From the NCBI GenBank assembly GCA_900320185.1, contig ONRD01000006.1, forward strand, positions 1-62,481: 62,481 nt of DNA. Direction: 5' to 3'. Shown here in pieces: positions 19,369 through 28,346 of this stretch (position 1 is the first letter of the stretch; each line of letters begins with the position of its first letter). The DNA comes from an uncultured Bacteroidales bacterium. GTDB taxonomy: Bacteria > Bacteroidota > Bacteroidia > Bacteroidales > UBA932. Position numbers and translations under genes: made by a program. The notes beneath the pieces are model-generated. The model was not told the origin of the DNA, made no database searches, and was given only the letters and a program-made list of their open reading frames with translations.

Positions 19369-19773
19369 TTATTTCTGCATGGTCTCCCAGTCCGGAAATT
19401 CCTTGACCGCCTCGAAAGGCTCATCCTCCCGCCCCGTCCGGCGGAAACCGAAGGTAGTGACCCCGTTGGTCACGGCGATATACCCGACATCCAGCACCAG
19501 GTTGTACTTGAGAGCCTGCTCGAGGACCGCGCGGTCGATGGTGACGTCCTCCCTCTTGCACTCGACCACCATCAGGGGGGACGCATCGCGGGAATAGACG
19601 AGGATGTCCGCCCGGAAGGCCTTGTCCCCGAACTTCATGCTGACTTCGCTCATCATCATGTGCATAGGCACCCCGAGCCTTTCGGAAAGCACCCCGATGA
19701 ACCACTGGCGGACCCTTTCTTCCGGGGTCAGGGCCACCATCTTCTTCCTCAACGGATCCCAGACTTTTTCCAT
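19369..19773 (-). CDS. Small HsdR N-terminal-like PD-(D/E)xK protein
   Basis: A 134-residue protein matching only the N-terminal nuclease-like domain of type I restriction R subunits. The nuclease core is visible as FRADILVYSRDASPLMVVEC followed by KRE, that is D-(about 14)-E-C-K, and a preceding helix TPEERVRQWFIGVLSERLGVP. No helicase, HsdM or HsdS gene is nearby, so it is not an intact restriction system. Solitary copies of this domain are common in Bacteroidota near holA or other housekeeping genes and have no known role. It follows the CapA-NlpC gene by 8 bases. Confidence 0.8.
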   Translation of the reverse strand: MEKVWDPLRKKMVALTPEERVRQWFIGVLSERLGVPMHMMMSEVSMKFGDKAFRADILVYSRDASPLMVVECKREDVTIDRAVLEQALKYNLVLDVGYIAVTNGVTTFGFRRTGREDEPFEAVKEFPDWETMQK

Positions 19774-19781
19774 AGCGAAGA

Positions 19782-21185
19782 TTATCTTTCGTCAACCACC
19801 CTCCTGATTCCGACGAACCTGGACTCATAATAAGAACTTCCGACCAGGGAATTGACCGTGACTCCCGAACTCGTGGATGCATGGATGAACTTGATGTTCC
19901 CGTCCGGCATCACCTCGGTCACTATGCCGACGTGTCCGGGCCAGACCCTGCGCTGGGTGTCGAAGAAGACAAGGTCTCCCCTGCGGACATCCTGCATCTT
20001 GACCTCCTTGCCCTGCGTGTACTGTCCCTGGGCCGTTCTCTGGAGGTGGATCCCATACCTTGCGAACACATAGGTGGTGAAACCGGAACAGTCGAAACGG
20101 TCAGGACCGGTCTTCCCCCTGGAATAACGGCACCCGATGTAATTGCTCGCGAATTCCAGCATCTCGTCCACCGTGCTGTTGATGGTGCCGAGCGGGACCG
20201 TCCTGATGACTCCGTCAGATGAAATCGAGATTCCGTTGTAAGGTATCACCGAATCGGCCACCGACTGCATTTTCTGGGCGGCACCGTCATTGCGGTCCAG
20301 GACCGGCCCGTGACCGGTCTTCTGGATGAAAGAGACCACATTTCCTTTGAGGAAACTGCCGTCGCGGTTGAGGGTCAACTGGACCAGAGGAGCCATCGCC
20401 CTGTTGCTCAACTCGTTGGTCTTGAACGGATCGCAGAATATCCCAAGGCTGTAGGTTATGAAACGGTCCTTGTAGATCTCGGAACCCGCCACGAAATCGG
20501 AACAGTGGCCTATGACGATGTCGGCCCCGGCATCGACGCACGAATGCGCGAAGTCCTGGATGGCGGCGTCGTCTTCCCCGCTACGGAAAGAGACCACCAC
20601 CGTGTTGCAAGCCTCGTCCAGGGCGCCGATGTACTCGGCGACCATCTCGAGGTCCCCGGTACCCAGTCCACCGGCCGTGCTCGTGAACGAGCAGAAACCT
20701 ACGGTCCAGCCCTCCTTGGTGACTATGGACGTCTCGCAGAGTCCTTTCAGGCCCACCGCCGTGATCCCGGCCTCCCGCAAAGCCGAAAGGGTGGAGTCCA
20801 CTCCTTCCGAACCGAAATCCCGGATATGGGCGGTCCCGACGTCAAGGACATCGAATCCGGCATCCTTGAGCCATGTGGAGAGGGCCTGGGGAGCCTTGAG
20901 GTAGAGAGCCTCCGAGTTGTTCCTCCAGTCCTGCGGAGAGGTATCGCCGTCGAAAAGCACATGACCCAGGCCGGCAAAGGCGAAATCAGTCTGGTGGAGG
21001 TATTTCCTGGCGCTCTCGAAGAGATGGCGCCCTTCGGAACGCGGGAGTTCCGCGGATGGATACTTGTCGCAGAGTATGATGTCGCCTACAAAGGAGAACG
21101 ACACTGTCTCAGAGGCGGGAGGACCGGCATGGAGCACCCATGCGGTCAAAAGGAAAAGAACCGACAATATTTGCGTCTTCTTCAT
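19782..21185 (-). CDS. CapA-like domain fused to NlpC/P60 peptidase
   Basis: Exported two-domain protein. After a signal peptide (MKKTQILSVLFLLTAWVLHA), residues about 28-300 resemble the CapA/PgsA metallophosphatase-like fold (FSFVGDIILCD, GFDVLDVGTAHIRDFGSEGVD, FITYSLGIFCDPF). Residues about 335-467 are an NlpC/P60 cell-wall hydrolase with catalytic Cys in RFDCSGFTTYVF (about 366), His in PGHVGIV (about 417) and a third polar residue near FIHAS. The hydrolase should cut peptide stems in peptidoglycan. In the CapA part the usual NLE is GLG (71-76) and the usual ANNHxxDxG is GTAHIRDFG (117-125), so metal catalysis is doubtful. It follows the GTPase-like gene set by 11 bases. Confidence 0.85.
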   Translation of the reverse strand: MKKTQILSVLFLLTAWVLHAGPPASETVSFSFVGDIILCDKYPSAELPRSEGRHLFESARKYLHQTDFAFAGLGHVLFDGDTSPQDWRNNSEALYLKAPQALSTWLKDAGFDVLDVGTAHIRDFGSEGVDSTLSALREAGITAVGLKGLCETSIVTKEGWTVGFCSFTSTAGGLGTGDLEMVAEYIGALDEACNTVVVSFRSGEDDAAIQDFAHSCVDAGADIVIGHCSDFVAGSEIYKDRFITYSLGIFCDPFKTNELSNRAMAPLVQLTLNRDGSFLKGNVVSFIQKTGHGPVLDRNDGAAQKMQSVADSVIPYNGISISSDGVIRTVPLGTINSTVDEMLEFASNYIGCRYSRGKTGPDRFDCSGFTTYVFARYGIHLQRTAQGQYTQGKEVKMQDVRRGDLVFFDTQRRVWPGHVGIVTEVMPDGNIKFIHASTSSGVTVNSLVGSSYYESRFVGIRRVVDER

Positions 21186-21196
21186 CGAATCAAAGT

Positions 21197-22450
21197 CTAA
21201 TAAACATGGAAGCTCCTCTCGCCAAGCAGTATCCCATCACACAGGAATCTGTATTGATAGTCTCCTGCCGGCCAGTTTCCATCCTCGTCCCTGCCATATC
21301 CCGCCAGACGGACCTGGCGGACTCCTTCTGAAAGGTAACCCGTGCTGGACGAGTATCTGTAGCTGCCCTGTGGAGTATCCATTTCCATGGTTATTTCGTA
21401 ACGCCCGGCTTCCCTGACCATGAGGTCGAGTTCCGGGACAAGATACCTGGTCCTGGGCGAAGTTATCAGGCTGCCGAACCCTACGAGCACGTCTCCCGCC
21501 TTGTTGGTGACTCCGAATTTCACATCCCTGAGCACCAGTGGGCCATAGCTGGCCACCCCGCTGTTCCTGCCGCTGTAGAAACGCTCCCTGAGGTTCCCCA
21601 GTACCAGGGGGCTGTAGTGTGGTTCGATGCCATAAACTTCATTTCCCCTGGACATGAAGGCCTCAAGGTCTTCAAGCACTTCACTGGAGAAATCCTCGAA
21701 CTCGGTTTTTCCGGAGAAACCGGAAGGAGACCCGATCCTGCCGATTGCCTTGACAAGATAAGAGTAGTGGGCTTTCTTGAGCGACGCCCTGAATGCCGAG
21801 GATGCGGAAGAAAGGTCTTCAAGGTCACCGAGACAGACGGTGCCGGAGCATGTCCTGAAGCCGTACACCTTCCCGAGGCAGGAATCGAGCGCCTGGATCC
21901 TCTTCAGTGAAACGTCGATTCCGGGACGGTATTCCACTTCCCGGGTCTCGTCAAGCACATGCCTGTATGTCAGAAGGAGCGACTTCAAAGTGTCCAGGTC
22001 GGCACGCACGTCGCTGTCGGCAGGGACCACGTAACCGTCACGGGCGTAAAGCCTCATCCCCGTCAGGGTGTCCACCCTCCCGAGGAAGAAGTCCACGGAC
22101 GCATCCTTCCACCCATGGGAGGAAAGAGACTCCACGCAGTGCGCGACCATCAATGGCGCATATTTGCGGTAGAAGAAACCGGAGCACAGGCCATCGCGCT
22201 CCCTGCGGGAAATCTTCTTTTCATAGACATAGTAGCCGATGGCATCCTTGACGGTCTCATAAGCCGTCTCGGAGTAGCCGTCATATCCGTCGATCCTGTC
22301 CTCGAGTTCAAGGACCAGGGAATTCCTGACCTCCGGAAGCCTGGGCGCTGAAACTACGCTGCCATAGAACACCATGATGCCGGCCACCGCTGCAGTGAGG
22401 CACAGCAGCAGCACCAGGATTTTCAGGAATGACCGGAAAGCGTTGCCCAT
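21197..22450 (-). CDS. Membrane-anchored protein of unknown function
   Basis: I do not recognise this family. One N-terminal membrane helix (FLKILVLLLCLTAAVAGIMVFYG, about residues 8-30) is followed by about 385 residues that should lie outside the cytoplasm. The middle part is helical with paired Cys residues (CSGTVCLGD, FRTC). The C-terminal 130 residues look like beta sandwich: YLVPELDLMVREAGRYEITM and a final strand set ending in RSFHVY, suggesting an Ig-like domain that interprets a ligand or partner. It lies 6 bases after the tethered GAP-like protein and 11 bases before the CapA-NlpC gene, so it probably belongs to the same system. Confidence 0.65.
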   Translation of the reverse strand: MGNAFRSFLKILVLLLCLTAAVAGIMVFYGSVVSAPRLPEVRNSLVLELEDRIDGYDGYSETAYETVKDAIGYYVYEKKISRRERDGLCSGFFYRKYAPLMVAHCVESLSSHGWKDASVDFFLGRVDTLTGMRLYARDGYVVPADSDVRADLDTLKSLLLTYRHVLDETREVEYRPGIDVSLKRIQALDSCLGKVYGFRTCSGTVCLGDLEDLSSASSAFRASLKKAHYSYLVKAIGRIGSPSGFSGKTEFEDFSSEVLEDLEAFMSRGNEVYGIEPHYSPLVLGNLRERFYSGRNSGVASYGPLVLRDVKFGVTNKAGDVLVGFGSLITSPRTRYLVPELDLMVREAGRYEITMEMDTPQGSYRYSSSTGYLSEGVRQVRLAGYGRDEDGNWPAGDYQYRFLCDGILLGERSFHVY

Positions 22451-22456
22451 GGTTCG

Positions 22457-23698
22457 TCAGTCTTCAGTGGTTTCCTGCTGTGGAGGGGCCTGGACTGTTT
22501 CCTGGGGGGGAACGGTACTTGACGGCTTCCTGCCATCCGCCCGTCCCGGGCGCGGGCGTCCGGCAGGCCTGGTGGCCGGACGGGAAGGCTCGGAGACGAC
22601 TTCCTCGGGAAGAACGCCTGCCGCCTCGACTGCAAGGCTGTCCAGGGCTGCCGAATCAGCAGGCTGGCCGGTCACCAGTCCTTCCTCTTCGACCGGCGGA
22701 TTCTCCTGACCGGCCGCATCATGAGGCTTGTACACCCACATTCCGATGAAAAAGCCAAGGACCAGTCCGGCGAAGGCCGACAGGAAAGGGAGAGCACGGC
22801 GGCCGAGGAGGAGCCCCGTCAAGGAAGGACGGTCCTGCACCTTCGGGGCTTCCGACTGCCGGGAGGGCTCCTCCCTTCTGACCAGCATCACTTCCATCGG
22901 ACGCGAGATCCTCCGGCCCTTCTCGTAAGTGAGATACCCCGGACATGAGACGCGGACGACCACATTCGCCGCAGACTGCTCCGGGACGGTGGCCGAACTC
23001 CCGGCCGGGACCTCGACGCCATTGAGGAACAGCCGGAAGCCATCCAGGCTCCCGCGGGTAGCGGAATCGATGACCTTGAAGTCACGGTAGGATATCCTCA
23101 CCTTCCCTTTCATCGACTCGAGAGGCTTCCGTGTAAGGTCCGCCAGCGAAGGCGAAGCTTCCAGCCCGGATGACTTGTCGATCAGGAACACTCCTGCGAA
23201 CCTCTCATATTCCCTCTGGAACGGTTCATCAAGGAGTTCCTCCAGGGTATGGCCGGTCCCGTCGCCATAGTAGCGGCAGGCTGAAGAAGTGCCGGCGGAA
23301 AGTATCGGACTGGGGAAAGGCTTGTCCGGATAGTCCCGGGCGAAGAGTTCCTCCAGCGAGGCCGTGTCCAGGTAAGGCGCCCTGATGCAATCCTCAAGGG
23401 CTGCGATGATCCCGGCCAGCCGGCGCCCAGTCACATCGCACCCGGACGGCACGAACAACGTCGCCGACGTGAAATCCCCTCCCCGGCCGGGGATGCTCTT
23501 GCACACGGTGAAAGCGGCTCCGGGCTGGACAAACCGCATGAAGGTCACGATGCCGGTTCCCTCGGAAAAGCCTTTGATGGCGCCGAGCCTGGTCCTGATG
23601 TCCGAGGCGGAGTACTTCTCCCAGCCTTCCCTGTTCCTGGAATACAATTCCTGCAAGCCTGCGCTCGCCCTTGTGACTATGATTCCCAGCTTGCTCAT
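22457..23698 (-). CDS. Possible GAP1-like N-terminal protein with PEGA-like domain and C-terminal membrane anchor
   Basis: A 413-residue protein of unusual layout. The N-terminal 190 residues are predicted globular and cytoplasmic; KSIPGRGGDFTSATLFVP (68-85) resembles the GR-x-G-(N/D)-F core of GAP1-N domains that pair with double GTPases in conflict systems, but the match is weak and by eye. Residues about 196-275 look like a PEGA-type beta domain (FRLFLNGVEVPAG, VRVSCPGYLTYEKG). A single membrane helix (302-323, FLSAFAGLVLGFFIGMWVY) precedes a Pro/Glu-rich tail of about 85 residues. Its start overlaps the GTPase-like gene stop by ATGA, so the two are translationally coupled and probably interact. 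Confidence 0.6.
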   Translation of the reverse strand: MSKLGIIVTRASAGLQELYSRNREGWEKYSASDIRTRLGAIKGFSEGTGIVTFMRFVQPGAAFTVCKSIPGRGGDFTSATLFVPSGCDVTGRRLAGIIAALEDCIRAPYLDTASLEELFARDYPDKPFPSPILSAGTSSACRYYGDGTGHTLEELLDEPFQREYERFAGVFLIDKSSGLEASPSLADLTRKPLESMKGKVRISYRDFKVIDSATRGSLDGFRLFLNGVEVPAGSSATVPEQSAANVVVRVSCPGYLTYEKGRRISRPMEVMLVRREEPSRQSEAPKVQDRPSLTGLLLGRRALPFLSAFAGLVLGFFIGMWVYKPHDAAGQENPPVEEEGLVTGQPADSAALDSLAVEAAGVLPEEVVSEPSRPATRPAGRPRPGRADGRKPSSTVPPQETVQAPPQQETTED

Positions 23699-25263
23699 TT
23701 TGAAAGCATTGACCTGATTTTTGACAATTTGTTCTCACTGAACGATGCAGAATGCCCAAGGATGGTCTGGAGGACTTCGTCGGCCTTGTCGCCGTTGAAA
23801 CGGCAATAGTTCTGGAAACAGACCTCCCCGATGGTGAACGGGATCACCTTGAGTTCTCCCCTGCCGATCTCATGCCGGAGGCAGATCTCCTTAAGGCTCG
23901 AATAGAATCCCTTGTAGTTCTGCGCCAGGTAGTCAAGGATCTGCTCCCTAACCTTGACTCCGTTCTTCCTGGCGTCCTTACGCGCCTTGTCCGCCTTTGT
24001 GATAAGGATGCAGACGAGGTCCGTCCTGTCCTTGAATATGTCATTGTCGCGGATGTAGGCCGCGGCGCCTTCAAGGTAGGTCCTCTGGTCAAGGCCCTCG
24101 TAGAGCCTTTCTTCAGCCCCGTATTCGATGACGAAGAAATGGAGCTTGCGGTTCCTGGTCCCGGCCTCGCCGAGCAGGATCCCGTCGAGGGTACCCAGGC
24201 ACTCTTCAGACTCATTGTCAAGGGGCAGGCCCTTGTACTTCTTGTACATGCAGCGGACAATCTCTCCGGCCATGTCGATGAAAGTCACTGGATGGTAATT
24301 CCCCGACATGTCCTGGATGTCCATGCCCATCTCGTAAGTCGCCCATATGGAAGTCCCGGGAGGGAGTACGCCCACCCTGTCCTCCTTGAACATCATTCCC
24401 AGCGCATCCATGTAGGCACCCCCCTGGCATTTCTGCCGCCGGACGGACTTGATGCCGCGGCAGTCGTCGGCGACGCTCATTATAGCCCCCAGGGCGCAGC
24501 TCTTCCCTGATGACGGGATCCCCCAGAAATAAACCTCGGTGCAAGGTTCCATGCTCACCTTTTCAACCTTCCTCTCAGGCATCGGAAGCTGACCGGACGA
24601 TTTACCCGCAAGCATCAGTTCCACGAACTCATCGGAGATGCCGGCCTCCCGGAGCCTGTCCACCCTGAAAAGGCCCTGGTCCGCCAGTGCCGAGACCACT
24701 GACGAATTCAGGAAGTTCCTGTCTTCCCGAAGCTGTGACAATATGTCCTCTTCCGTGATGGAGTGCTTGGCGAGCAAGCCGGCGAGAAGGGCGGTGACCG
24801 CTGCATTCGGGTCGGTGACATTCATGTCCGCAGGGATGGCCGCGATCTGCCTGACAACTTCTGAGAAAGGCTTGGGAGCATTCCGGATGAGCGAGTTGAT
24901 GGCCTTCCTTGCCTCCACCGAATACTTTCCGACGGGATACTTGTCAAGGAAAGAGGCAAGCGCAGTCCTGTCGGCCTTGTCGGTGGTGCGCCATTCAAGG
25001 TCCTCGTCTCCTACGGGGGAAGGTACTTCCCTCGAAGCGTCAGGGCTGGCTGCGGGCTGGTCCGCCTCCTGGACGATTATCCCGCTTTCCTCGATTGCGG
25101 CAAGTATGCGGCGAACCTCCTCCGCCTTGGATTCAAAGCCGCCGAAGGTGTTGCGGCGGTCGCACAATTCCTCATAGGAAACGACCCCGAGCTTTATCGC
25201 CCTGGCGAGCTCGTACGGGCTGATTTCCTCGATGTAATCGAATATTTCCTGCTTATTCCTCAT
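23695..25263 (-). CDS. Large P-loop GTPase-like protein with helical N-terminus
   Basis: The start is set at MRNKQEIFDYIEE, 4 bases after the upstream gene; the longer frame reads back into that gene. Residues 1-60 form a helical module (ISPYELARAIKLGVVSYEEL). DEDLEWRTTDKADRTALASF with KYPVGKYSVEARKAINSL (87-125) resembles short helical linkers found in bacterial signalling NTPases. The GTPase core has P-loop GIPSSGKS (248-255), a switch I candidate PPGTS (301-305), DMAGE (330-334) matching DxxG, and TKAD (422-425) matching (N/T)KxD. This suggests GTP binding. I place it near the DO-GTPase groups by architecture, not by alignment. It is coupled to the tethered protein downstream. Confidence 0.72.
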   Translation of the reverse strand: MRNKQEIFDYIEEISPYELARAIKLGVVSYEELCDRRNTFGGFESKAEEVRRILAAIEESGIIVQEADQPAASPDASREVPSPVGDEDLEWRTTDKADRTALASFLDKYPVGKYSVEARKAINSLIRNAPKPFSEVVRQIAAIPADMNVTDPNAAVTALLAGLLAKHSITEEDILSQLREDRNFLNSSVVSALADQGLFRVDRLREAGISDEFVELMLAGKSSGQLPMPERKVEKVSMEPCTEVYFWGIPSSGKSCALGAIMSVADDCRGIKSVRRQKCQGGAYMDALGMMFKEDRVGVLPPGTSIWATYEMGMDIQDMSGNYHPVTFIDMAGEIVRCMYKKYKGLPLDNESEECLGTLDGILLGEAGTRNRKLHFFVIEYGAEERLYEGLDQRTYLEGAAAYIRDNDIFKDRTDLVCILITKADKARKDARKNGVKVREQILDYLAQNYKGFYSSLKEICLRHEIGRGELKVIPFTIGEVCFQNYCRFNGDKADEVLQTILGHSASFSENKLSKIRSMLSK

Positions 25264-25267
25264 TCTC

Positions 25268-26338
25268 TTACAAGGTAAAACTGCCAAGGTCGTCTTCATC
25301 AGCCTCAAGAGCTGCTGCCTCACTTCCGGCGTACTCGTCTCCTGCGTCCTCGCCTCCTGCGTTCGTGGCTCCCGCACCCTTGCCTCCCGCGTCCTCCGGC
25401 AGACAGTCATCTTCATGCCGGGACGCTTCCCAACGGCTCTCCCGACGGCCGGAGGGGAACAGCGTGTACCAGTTCCTGCTGTGCCGGCGCTGCAGGAAGT
25501 AAGGAAGCATCAGCATTAGCCATACGGCAAGGAGCAGCAATATGGAAAGAGGGTTGAATCCTCCCTTGACGTAAAGTTCCCTCAGGGACTCGAGTCCGCC
25601 GATGGCCTCGTCGAGGCTCTCATGCCCGGGGTCGAACCAATATTCATCGTCCAGTTCCTCCCCCTTGAAGCTTACGCGGGAAAGCTCCTCGAGCCTCCCG
25701 TGCCATTCCATAAGGGCGGCCTCAGTCCTGTCTATGCTCCCCAGCAGGAATATGTTCCATGTCGAGATATTCCCGGAAGACCTGCCGATCCAGTCTTCAG
25801 CGCGTTTCCTGAGCTCCTGCTCGTTATAGTACAGCAGCGACGCCTCCAGCGCCCTGACCCTGTTGTCCTGCTGGACCTGTGTCAGCTTTTTCTTCTTTAC
25901 GGCATCCCTGAAGCGGTCGCAACGTGCTCGGGAATACTCTTCATAACTGTCGAACATCTTCCGCGAATCCTGGATCGACTGTTCGAAACGCGTCCTGATG
26001 GCATCTTCCCTGGAATGGACTGTCAGGGAATGCATGAAGGGGACCATAAGCACGCAGAGGATGAACGGGAAGGAGAAGAACAGGATCCTTTCCCGCCTTA
26101 TGCAGGCCGCGAAACCGGAATCCGTTCCCTTGAGCCGCTGAAGGGTGGAGAAGGACAGGACCAGGACCAGGGAGACCACGAATGTGATGACGCCCGGGAC
26201 GATGTACCCTCCGCCAAGCCGGTATGTCAGGCCCACGAAAGTGCCGTAGGCAGTCGCGATGACAGCCAACGACGCCAGTATGTGTCCCCATGAAAACTTC
26301 AGGAGAACGTTCATTCTTCTTCCGGTCGTATTGTCCAT
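25268..26338 (-). CDS. Four-helix membrane protein with acidic Gly/Ala-rich tail
   Basis: First gene of the GTPase-like set; family not recognised. Three hydrophobic helices occupy about residues 17-40, 46-66 and 86-107. A long helical, charged soluble segment (about 110-255, with RFEQSIQDSRKMFDSYEEYSR) follows, then a fourth helix (ILLLLAVWLMLMLPYFL, about 266-282). The C-terminal 60 residues are low complexity with repeated GGxDAG-like units (AGGKGAGATNAGGEDAGDEY), and the DNA under them is also repetitive. The start may be Met 1 or Met 9. Together with the GTPase-like protein it may form a membrane-based signalling complex; that is inference from position only. Confidence 0.65.
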   Translation of the reverse strand: MDNTTGRRMNVLLKFSWGHILASLAVIATAYGTFVGLTYRLGGGYIVPGVITFVVSLVLVLSFSTLQRLKGTDSGFAACIRRERILFFSFPFILCVLMVPFMHSLTVHSREDAIRTRFEQSIQDSRKMFDSYEEYSRARCDRFRDAVKKKKLTQVQQDNRVRALEASLLYYNEQELRKRAEDWIGRSSGNISTWNIFLLGSIDRTEAALMEWHGRLEELSRVSFKGEELDDEYWFDPGHESLDEAIGGLESLRELYVKGGFNPLSILLLLAVWLMLMLPYFLQRRHSRNWYTLFPSGRRESRWEASRHEDDCLPEDAGGKGAGATNAGGEDAGDEYAGSEAAALEADEDDLGSFTL

Positions 26339-26432
26339 TCACGCATTCCCATTGCATAAAATGTGCCTTCATGAAAAAAATCGCCGGGACTTGAAACATA
26401 TTCCGGACACTGGGCGTATAAGTAGCACGCTT

Positions 26433-26831
26433 GGGGATGTTCTGGTTTCGACAGCATCGATTCCGGGCGGTAAGCATACCGGGCTTCTGGGAGATCTGCC
26501 CGTAAAAACCGTTCTTCCAAAAATTTAGTTGCTGATAACAACTACGCACTCGCTGCCTAATCCGACCAAGTCGATTAGCTTAATCCGAACCGCCTAGGCT
26601 GCGGTTCCGACGAGTATCCTGCGGTCTCTCTCCTTCCGAGTACCGGGTTCAGGGTATCATCCAGGAAGGATGCTCCGGCGGACTCCTTTAAAGCCGGCCA
26701 AGATTCAAAGGATAAGCTTCGGTTAGCCCGCCTTCCGGCAGGCCGTCGCCGACAACCAAAGGAAGGATAAGTATGTAGAAAGCCTCTTGGTACGTTGTTT
26801 GGACGGCGGTTCGACTCCGCCCATCTCCACA
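26433..26831 (+). ncRNA. ssrA: Transfer-messenger RNA
   Basis: tmRNA rescues stalled ribosomes. The 5' end GGGGATGTTCTGGTTTCGAC and the 3' T-arm GGCGGTTCGACTCCGCC are both characteristic, and GGGGATG (26433-26439) pairs with CATCTCC (26822-26828) with one G-U pair. The tag frame is at 26531-26560 and reads ADNNYALAA then TAA, the Bacteroidota-type tag ending in ALAA. The full CCA is not encoded. A hairpin terminator follows. It is divergent from the GTPase-like operon, about 94 bases away. Confidence 0.95.
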
Positions 26832-27032: not shown

Positions 27033-28346
27033 TCAGAGTTTGTATTTTTCGTGAACGCGGGAAAACTCAACGGAGGGATTGGACTCGAGCACCGATTTTA
27101 TTTCCTTATAGCCGCCCCTGGTGATATCAGGAATTACTATTTTGGCCTCCCGCTTGGACTGATCGGAACGAATAGCCTTGATGGTGCCTTTTATCTCGAC
27201 ACATCCGAATATCGAGAACGGCTTCTTGAACCAAGTGACGGTATCTATCTCAGCGAACGGGACAGACAGTTCCTTCATCTTCTTTTTCCGAAGCCGCCTG
27301 GGATTATAAATCATCCTGTCGGACAAGAACAGCACATAAGGAGCCCTTCCGAACATATTCCGGAAAAACAAATGCGATGAACGGACATCCCCTGCACCTT
27401 CCGTAAAGACACCGTTTTCTTTCACCCGGCGGATGATGTCCTTGACTTTAAATCTTGAGAACCTGTGCCTGGTAGTCAGGTTCTGCTCGCCATAAACGGA
27501 AATTCTCTTCCTGAGGAAACCTTTTCCCGCGAACACTGCATAGATCCTTTTGTAGGGGATATAGGTCATTTCATCCTTGGAGAAGCGCCTTGTCGAATAC
27601 GTAAGCGCCTCATCCGTAAGAGTGATGTTCTCCCGTCCGAAGAATCCCGAGGAATATGACACCCCGTCTGCATCAAGTCTCCGGGATTTGCTGAAGCACA
27701 GGTCTTTCACTTCCTGCCTCAGAATGGGAGACTTGATCTTGGCATTTATCTGCCGATGGTATCCGCAATAGATATTCGACCGGTTCTGGACGAAAAAAGC
27801 CATCTCTTCAAGCGGAACGCTGTCCACTTCATTACCGCGGATATAGTACAGCCATCGATCTGAATATGCAATATATCTTTTCCGCAGAAAGCCTCCGGCA
27901 TATTCACATCTGCCACATGCTGCGCCGCATTCCTTCAGGAGAGCCTCCGTCCGGTCATAATCCTCCGGACTCAACTTTATTGAGATCGTGGCAGTGTTCA
28001 TCTTGAGATCCCTGTCCAAATCCATGTCCATCTCCTCGGAAGGTTCATCCGCTGTTTCACTTATTCTACGAAGGATCCTTTTGAAAAGGTTATCATCCTT
28101 GTCATCAGATTTCAGGTCCTCAGGCTTCGGGACCCCATCATAGGAATCTTCCCTGGAAATGACCAGCAACTTGTTCCTGGACAGCGGCGAGCCATATCCG
28201 AAATATGTCAGGTTGTCCAAGGGAAACGATTCTACCAGCTTTTCTGAGAACAAGCCTTTTCTGTAGAGCTTGATCGTCGTTCCATCGAATACAAGTCTTT
28301 TTTTATTCAGGAAAGAGGGTTTGAGGTGAATAGTAAAATTATCCAT
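27033..28346 (-). CDS. Cytoplasmic protein with about four PH-like repeats
   Basis: No named family recognised. The 437 residues divide into similar beta-rich blocks in which a strand ends in a displayed residue pattern and is followed by a hydrophobic site. Examples are VFDGTTIKLYRKG then FPLDNLTYFGYG (about 19-52), YIAYSDRWLYYIRGNEVDSV then EEMAFFV (about 150-185), ITLTDEALTYSTRR then IPYKRIYAVFAG (about 237-270), and VLFLSDRMIYNP then VPFAEIDTVTWF (about 335-370). This is the look of bacterial PH-like (bPH) domains. There is no signal peptide or membrane helix. The gene is less GC-rich than its neighbours. It stands alone with its own promoter, divergent from yhhQ. Confidence 0.6.
   Translation of the reverse strand: MDNFTIHLKPSFLNKKRLVFDGTTIKLYRKGLFSEKLVESFPLDNLTYFGYGSPLSRNKLLVISREDSYDGVPKPEDLKSDDKDDNLFKRILRRISETADEPSEEMDMDLDRDLKMNTATISIKLSPEDYDRTEALLKECGAACGRCEYAGGFLRKRYIAYSDRWLYYIRGNEVDSVPLEEMAFFVQNRSNIYCGYHRQINAKIKSPILRQEVKDLCFSKSRRLDADGVSYSSGFFGRENITLTDEALTYSTRRFSKDEMTYIPYKRIYAVFAGKGFLRKRISVYGEQNLTTRHRFSRFKVKDIIRRVKENGVFTEGAGDVRSSHLFFRNMFGRAPYVLFLSDRMIYNPRRLRKKKMKELSVPFAEIDTVTWFKKPFSIFGCVEIKGTIKAIRSDQSKREAKIVIPDITRGGYKEIKSVLESNPSVEFSRVHEKYKL

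What the first reader, a model, noticed from the sequence alone, without database searches (positions are those of the whole stretch)
19782..26338. Candidate undescribed membrane GTPase system with a peptidoglycan hydrolase at its end
Five minus-strand genes are packed with gaps of 4-11 bases or an ATGA overlap. They encode a four-helix membrane protein with an acidic tail, a 522-residue P-loop protein (GIPSSGKS, PPGTS, DMAGE, TKAD), a tethered protein with a GR-x-G-D-F block like GAP1-N plus a PEGA-like domain, a second anchored protein, and a CapA-NlpC/P60 fusion. Known double-GTPase conflict systems pair a GTPase with a GAP1-like partner; here the set adds envelope parts and a cell-wall hydrolase. 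This could be a signalling or defence device acting on the envelope, or a housekeeping envelope machine of this lineage.
Basis: partly seen in the sequence, partly recalled or inferred. Interest (0 to 1): 0.8.

Follow-up and report, generated by a model that had tools for sequence, protein, structure and literature searches.

The report
Detached membrane GTPase switch operon
Four of the five genes form the membrane GTP-switch half of a larger, little-studied bacterial gene system whose other half (SrfB, SrfC and a protease) was not found here, while the fifth gene, a cell-wall cutter, looks like a neighbour that belongs to this chromosomal spot.

Summary
The five genes, motifs and spacings are real. 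A-D (21197-26338) form one conserved module: a four-helix membrane protein (A), a Ras-fold GTPase (B) related to the DO-GTPase/YcjX group, a membrane-tethered partner (C) whose N-terminus models as a longin-like fold, and an anchored protein (D). I found B at 20 other loci. At 16 of the 17 where it could be tested the module sits directly behind a subtilase; 13 of those 16 also show SrfB and SrfC, the rest end at a contig edge. The window is the stripped form: no subtilase, SrfB or SrfC beside it, and no SrfB or SrfC match in its genome. E (CapA-NlpC/P60) is not a constant part: three congeneric genomes hold a related E in the same slot beside the tmRNA gene without A-D, and none of the 20 loci has E in the DNA held. 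Most likely this is a horizontally spread conflict- or envelope-stress-type GTPase switch, here detached from its usual effectors. No function was tested.

The parts
25268..26338 (-). Gene A: four-TM membrane protein; long loop 104-256 inferred periplasmic, acidic C-terminal tail inferred cytoplasmic
   Evidence: ORF; TM by hydropathy; homologs before B at related loci; fused to B in L009
23695..25263 (-). Gene B: GTPase; helical N-terminus about 1-220, Ras-like GTPase domain about 239-507 with GIPSSGKS, DMAGE, TKAD
22457..23698 (-). Gene C: N-terminal longin-like domain (about 1-155), beta-sandwich (about 196-279), one TM (302-320), disordered proline-rich tail
21197..22450 (-). Gene D: N-terminal membrane anchor with a mostly helical, probably periplasmic body and an extra C-terminal segment
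   Evidence: Weak homologs behind C in several loci; no Pfam family; TM 11-29
19782..21185 (-). Gene E: secreted CapA (PGA_cap) plus NlpC/P60 fusion; last gene of the run, not a constant part of the system
   Evidence: Pfam; Cys/His/His of NlpC/P60 present; in the same slot without A-D in G605, G821, G812; not found at 20 B loci
26433..26830 (+). tmRNA (ssrA), 94 bases from the start of A; right border of the variable slot
   Evidence: ARAGORN; same border in G605, G602, G598, G821, G812
19369..19773 (-). HSDR_N-like protein gene; left border of the slot
   Evidence: Pfam HSDR_N_2 88 bits; same border in those five genomes

Best explanation
A-D is the membrane GTPase switch module of a horizontally spread, conflict- or envelope-stress-type system that normally also has SrfB, SrfC (a second P-loop protein with GTPase-like motifs) and a subtilase. 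Inferred working: A anchors GTPase B to the inner membrane; C presents a longin-like domain to B as its GAP, exchange factor or scaffold and reaches across the membrane; D senses or relays from the periplasm; a change of nucleotide state in B drives an output. In complete systems the output arm is SrfB/SrfC/subtilase. In this window that arm is missing, so the module works alone, through an unlinked partner, or is a remnant. E became the last gene of the run because A-D came to lie between the slot's E-type gene and the tmRNA gene. Shown: gene content, synteny, missing genes, motifs, slot comparison. Inferred from models: folds and topology. Inferred only: switch direction, signal, output, and the order of events at the slot.
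For: Synteny: 16 of 17 testable non-window loci have the subtilase directly before A, and 13 of the 16 show SrfC and SrfB; SrfB is PF07520 at 625 bits and SrfC PF10139 at 395 bits in L013; a Runella plasmid has SrfB, SrfC, S8, a small protein and the B match in the same order, 1.3 kb after brxL. All 8 non-own genomes with the B GTPase domain among 393 of the order are SrfB-positive. No SrfB or SrfC match in the own genome. GTPase: invariant motif residues in 17 of 17 rows, model and YcjX/G-alpha matches, DO-GTPase1 hit of L048. A-B fusion and a second B in L009. Longin-like C. Patchy: 6 of 300 genus and 5 of 199 family genomes, own included.
Confidence: 0.6

Rival explanations
1. The five genes are one functional unit: the GTPase module controls the periplasmic hydrolase E, an effector swap in which a peptidoglycan hydrolase replaces the usual subtilase.
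For: 11-base D-E gap; intact NlpC/P60 residues; window E is only 41-43% identical to the three congeneric slot E proteins, which share 81-89% with each other, while the flanking genes are about 70-86% identical to the window's, so window E is unusually diverged. L009, the other copy without the subtilase, has a weak transpeptidase-like gene beside it (16.5 bits, cut-off 22.1).
Against: E is at 0 of 20 B loci in the DNA held; the same-slot E of three congeneric genomes stands without A-D in the fetched stretches, and G605 is negative for B (whether G812 and G821 were among those 300 is not shown); five CapA-NlpC fusion loci elsewhere in the family have no A-D nearby.
Confidence: 0.17
2. A-D is a decaying remnant of the full SrfB/SrfC/subtilase system without a function of its own.
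For: Three of the usual genes are missing; C is shorter than its relatives with both ends held (413 aa against 541-1074 aa).
Against: All four frames are open, tightly packed, with intact GTPase motifs; L009 also keeps A-B-C-D without the usual arm.
Confidence: 0.15
3. The module is an envelope-stress GTPase system like YcjX with a membrane partner, not a conflict system.
For: YcjX is the top structural match and its structure paper calls it a stress protein (reference title seen); membrane and periplasmic parts dominate.
Against: G-alpha subunits tie with YcjX; patchy distribution; plasmid copy near a BREX gene; association with SrfB/SrfC and a subtilase.
Confidence: 0.25
4. Housekeeping envelope machine of this lineage.
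For: Membrane-linked proteins; chromosomal position beside the tmRNA gene.
Against: B in 6 of 300 genus genomes; slot without A-D in G605, G602, G598, G821 and G812.
Confidence: 0.03

Closest known systems
DO-GTPase / GAP1 GTPase-centric conflict systems (Kaur et al. 2020, PMC7159879; passages and section 29 seen)
   Same: GTPase with a glutamate in its Walker B region and TM-bearing partners; that paper reports GTPases with four N-terminal TM helices, GTPase pairs, PEGA or beta-sandwich parts and Hsp70-linked neighbourhoods; L009 has an A-B fusion plus a second B
   Different: Window B matches no DO-GTPase model; no GAP1, GASH or FNIII component found; one GTPase only in the window; relatives go with SrfB/SrfC/subtilase, and SrfB has 0 occurrences in that paper's main text
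SrfABC operon (SrfB PF07520, SrfC PF10139)
   Same: In relatives A-D follows SrfB, SrfC and a subtilase; same Pfam families
   Different: Window has neither; the papers seen treat SrfABC as putative effectors or a toxin complex (PMC11942329, PMC6950479; passages), and the passages seen name no A-D
YcjX stress GTPase (6nz6 and others)
   Different: Low identity; G-alpha subunits tie within 1 Z; B has its own helical N-terminus and partners
Longin-domain GTPase regulators (Lst4/FNIP, FLCN, GATOR1 subunits, DENND1, TRAPP) and TagF
   Same: C residues 1 to about 155 model as this fold; longin and roadblock domains bind GTPases (PMC3521125, passages)
   Different: Borderline Z, 5-11% identity, no sequence match; C is a membrane-tethered bacterial protein

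Membership tests
DO-GTPase family | GTPase motifs with conserved glutamate in the Walker B region | tested here: met
   G333 and E334, G248/G253/K254 and T422/K423/D425 invariant in 17 of 17 rows; DYAGE of a real DO-GTPase1 aligns to DMAGE by hhalign, E 0.0011, probability 20.8
DO-GTPase family | Match to Pfam DO-GTPase1/2 over the curated cut-off | tested here: not met
   Window B: no match. In the family 4 of 17 members touch each model at E up to 0.5; L048 passes the DO-GTPase1 cut-off
DO-GTPase family | Ras-like fold close to YcjX | tested here: met
DO-GTPase/GAP1 system | GAP1 protein with N, M and C domains | tested here: not met
   0 of 14 C-family rows match a GAP1 model; hhalign to a real GAP1 E 0.83. 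A shared fold was not tested
DO-GTPase/GAP1 system | GASH (N1 type) or FNIII protein (N2 type) | tested here: not met
   No such Pfam match in A-E
SrfBC system | SrfB and SrfC genes in the array | tested here: not met
   Not in the window run; no match in the own genome at 92.8% completeness (the SrfC search rang in no control). Met in 13 of 16 relatives with the subtilase
A-B-C(-D) module defined here | Adjacent A, B, C, D homologs in order | tested here: met
   In the most distant loci parts are by position: C in L047-L050, D in L047-L050, L176 and L177, A in L176
Longin domain | Longin fold at the N-terminus of C | tested here: inconclusive
NlpC/P60 and PGA_cap | Pfam match over cut-off, NlpC/P60 Cys/His/His present | tested here: met
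Known anti-phage system (PADLOC) | Match to a defence model | tested here: not met
   A-E: 0 families at E up to 5

The most novel reading that the evidence does not exclude
A bacterial membrane GTPase controlled by a membrane-tethered longin-type regulator, built like the longin/GTPase pairs of eukaryotes and Asgard archaea, normally drives a SrfB/SrfC/subtilase arm; here it has been cut loose and re-wired to a peptidoglycan hydrolase of the tmRNA slot, an effector swap in progress.
Probability: 0.15. Interest if true: 0.8.

Novelty: new variant of a known kind. Interest (0 to 1): 0.55.

Why it matters
[quoted passage not shown] Finding them, in Bacteroidota, in a fixed array with a subtilase, a DO-GTPase-type membrane GTPase and a longin-like partner suggests a bacterial signalling or conflict device rather than only a host-directed factor. 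The window supplies a natural experiment: the switch module without the rest. If C is a true longin regulator, the longin/GTPase partnership would reach into bacterial accessory systems, and that is directly testable with purified B and C.

Tried and rejected
GAP1-N identity of C: Pfam scan of 14 rows and hhalign against a real GAP1 gave nothing; dropped as a sequence claim. L009's upstream P-loop gene and its 327-residue neighbour, which I took by eye for a GAP1-like pair: hhalign with B covers only the P-loop (E 0.0022, probability 12.8), with C nothing (E 0.55). Phage or viral origin: no B relative in 50,697 phage records or in viral contigs (32 pattern hits, none confirmed). PDB sequence matches of SrfB, SrfC, B and C: none, or none convincing. 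Sigma-70 promoter scan: 2 found against 2.8 expected, uninformative; terminator-like sites 14 against 7.1, mostly inside genes, not used.

PADLOC flank test: 105 proteins from 13 flanks of 8 genomes (L194 was fetched and left out; ORFs under 120 or over 1,500 residues or running off an end were left out) against 90 from 13 control stretches of the same genomes. Flanks showed type I and IV restriction, type II and orphan methyltransferases, AbiEi/AbiEii, PbeA and PDC-S01; controls showed UvrD-type helicases and PDC-S01. Only 25 of 85 and 25 of 56 families are displayed, so no enrichment is claimed.

Rows dropped: of the 54 genomes matching A1, 45 cover only the N-terminal region. Fifteen SrfB-positive genomes have no B GTPase match; I fetched 11 and read 11 stretches of them (the second SrfB contig of G213, L142, was not read): 7 have SrfB-x-SrfC, 3 SrfB without SrfC in the stretch, 1 (G462) is cut in the subtilase and may belong to the A-D type. 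Of 10 tmRNA loci read (G605, G602, G598) share the window's left flank; the other 7 do not show these flank genes, so they say nothing on the slot, though two have an NlpC/P60-only match near the tmRNA. In one search tblastn gave no A match in six loci (L047-L050, L176, L177); blastp found A in five of them. A and D were not modelled.
Full report
Observation. The five ORFs, their packing and motifs are as described. E is a PGA_cap plus NLPC_P60 protein; A, B, C and D reach no Pfam cut-off, and none of the five matches PADLOC. NCBIfam adds nothing over cut-off for A-D.

Distribution. With B as query, 5 of 199 genomes of the family match, own included, and a scan of the named species collection gave four loci: Bacteroides muris, Phocaeicola paurosaccharolyticus and two Prevotellaceae MAGs. 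With a nine-row profile 54 of 393 genomes of the order match at 1e-4, but only 9, own included, cover the GTPase domain; the other 45 match the N-terminal region alone. In the genus 6 of 300 genomes match at 1e-8, own included. This is an accessory element, not a core gene.

Neighbourhood. I read 20 non-window loci with B (L006 to L013, L043 to L050, L174 to L177). Three are too short to show what precedes A (L007, L011, L046). Of the other 17, 16 have a subtilase directly before A (in L047 with one small ORF between; in L176 A is by position only). Thirteen of the 16 also show SrfC and SrfB; the other three end at a contig edge (L012, L174; L043 after SrfC). In L013 SrfB scores 625 bits, SrfC 395 and the subtilase 147. 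The exception, L009, has A fused to B, a second B, C and D, with another P-loop protein, a 327-residue gene and a weak transpeptidase-like gene upstream. B is conserved by sequence at all 20; C and D become positional in the most distant loci (C in L047-L050; D in L047-L050, L176, L177). A Runella plasmid holds SrfB, SrfC, an S8 peptidase, a 312-residue protein and then the B match (26% identity over 65% of B), with brxL of BREX 1.3 kb before SrfB. All eight non-own genomes with the B GTPase domain in the order sample are SrfB-positive, out of 23 SrfB-positive genomes. Of the 15 without B I read 11: seven carry SrfB, a protein of 325-341 residues and SrfC, three SrfB without SrfC in the stretch, one is cut in the subtilase.

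The window is the odd one out. Its own genome (92.8% complete) gives no match to SrfB or SrfC at E up to 1; the SrfC search rang in no control genome, so that absence is weaker, although the model does find SrfC in a relative. A subtilase elsewhere in the genome was not searched for. The five other B-positive genomes of the genus all have the subtilase beside A, and the four whose contigs reach far enough have SrfC and SrfB.

The slot. In three congeneric genomes (G605, G821, G812) the order is HSDR_N gene, a ThiF-like gene (my reading of the sequence), an E-type gene, tmRNA, with no A-D in the stretch; in G602 the E gene is missing too, and in G598 the HSDR_N gene lies directly beside the tmRNA. 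Seven other tmRNA loci of the genus do not show these flank genes. The window E groups with the three slot E proteins in a nine-sequence tree (support 1.0) but is only 41-43% identical to them, whereas they are 81-89% identical to each other and their flanking genes are about 70-86% identical to the window's. So the window's E evolved fast or was replaced by a related gene. Full-length or nearly full-length E matches are rare in the genus: G000, G605, G821 and G812 among 9 of 280 genomes with any match at 1e-30. Five CapA-NlpC fusion loci of the family have no A-D beside them, and none of the 20 B loci has E in the DNA held. E is therefore best read as belonging to the slot, with A-D lying between it and the tmRNA gene. 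In the window the ThiF-like gene is not in the slot; whether it is elsewhere was not tested.

Mechanism. The A-B fusion in L009 argues that A is B's membrane anchor. A longin-type domain encoded right behind a GTPase suggests a GAP, exchange factor or scaffold (inference; longin and roadblock domains bind GTPases, PMC3521125, passages). D and the tail of C are placed to read the periplasm. In complete systems SrfB (weak FtsA-like stretch, E 0.0064), SrfC (P-loop GESQMGKS and DFPG seen in the sequence) and the subtilase would be the output arm; this is inferred. The patchy spread, the plasmid copy near brxL and the likeness to GTPase-centric conflict systems favour conflict; YcjX likeness favours envelope stress. 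I put conflict first, with low certainty.

Literature. Ten searches of the held library. SrfB with SrfC and GTPase: 2 papers. With Bacteroides: 0. srfABC with operon: 30, 20 listed. GTPase, GAP1 and conflict terms: 4. SrfB, Hsp70, subtilase, operon, three of four: 15, 10 listed. SrfB names or Pfam accessions: 9, listing only. DO-GTPase: 3. Longin, bacterial, GTPase, TagF, three of four: 154, 12 listed. SrfB, SrfC, phage, defense: 4. Longin domain with conflict and prokaryotic: 7. Passages were seen of PMC7159879 (and section 29), PMC6950479, PMC3521125, PMC4917890, PMC11237479, PMC3608642 and PMC11942329; the rest as listings with abstract starts. PMC7159879 has no SrfB, longin, TagF or YcjX by word search of its main text. 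PMC3608642 (passages) places srfB/srfC of host-associated Deltaproteobacteria beside T6SS post-translational control genes, a curious parallel to the TagF-like match of C. In what I saw I met no description of the SrfB-SrfC-subtilase-A-B-C-D array; subscription papers and preprints were not searched.

Verdict. Real, mostly as described, but the conserved unit is A-D and not A-E, and it is a detached piece of a larger system.

Noticed in passing
19369-26830: The stretch between the HSDR_N gene and the tmRNA gene is a variable slot in this genus: empty, ThiF-like gene only, ThiF-like plus E-type gene, or E to A as here (five genomes compared).
   Followed up: yes
L009:1348-13034: Prevotellaceae MAG locus with an A-B fusion, a second B, C and D, plus an upstream P-loop protein, a 327-residue gene and a weak transpeptidase-like gene; no SrfB, SrfC or subtilase in the stretch.
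   Followed up: partly
L180 (NZ_CP031031.1 56244-83230): Runella plasmid carries SrfB, SrfC, S8, a small protein and the B match in this order, 1.3 kb after brxL of BREX.
   Followed up: partly
L136, L137, L139, L140, L143, L144, L147: Second SrfB type: SrfB, an unknown protein of 325-341 residues, SrfC, in three of the seven a subtilase, without A-D; L144 also has a STAND-like NTPase (motif recalled) nearby.
   Followed up: partly
L006:7305-7985, L007:1592-2458, L008:7289-7930: A DUF805 protein (Pfam match tested for L006 only) whose N-terminus resembles that of B by eye lies between A and B.
   Followed up: no
27033-28346: Gene on the other side of the tmRNA with only weak bacterial PH-domain matches (E 0.034, under cut-off).
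   Followed up: no
order sample: 45 of 393 genomes match only the N-terminal region of the B profile, a repeat that hits YfiO in some members and seems common in the order.
   Followed up: no
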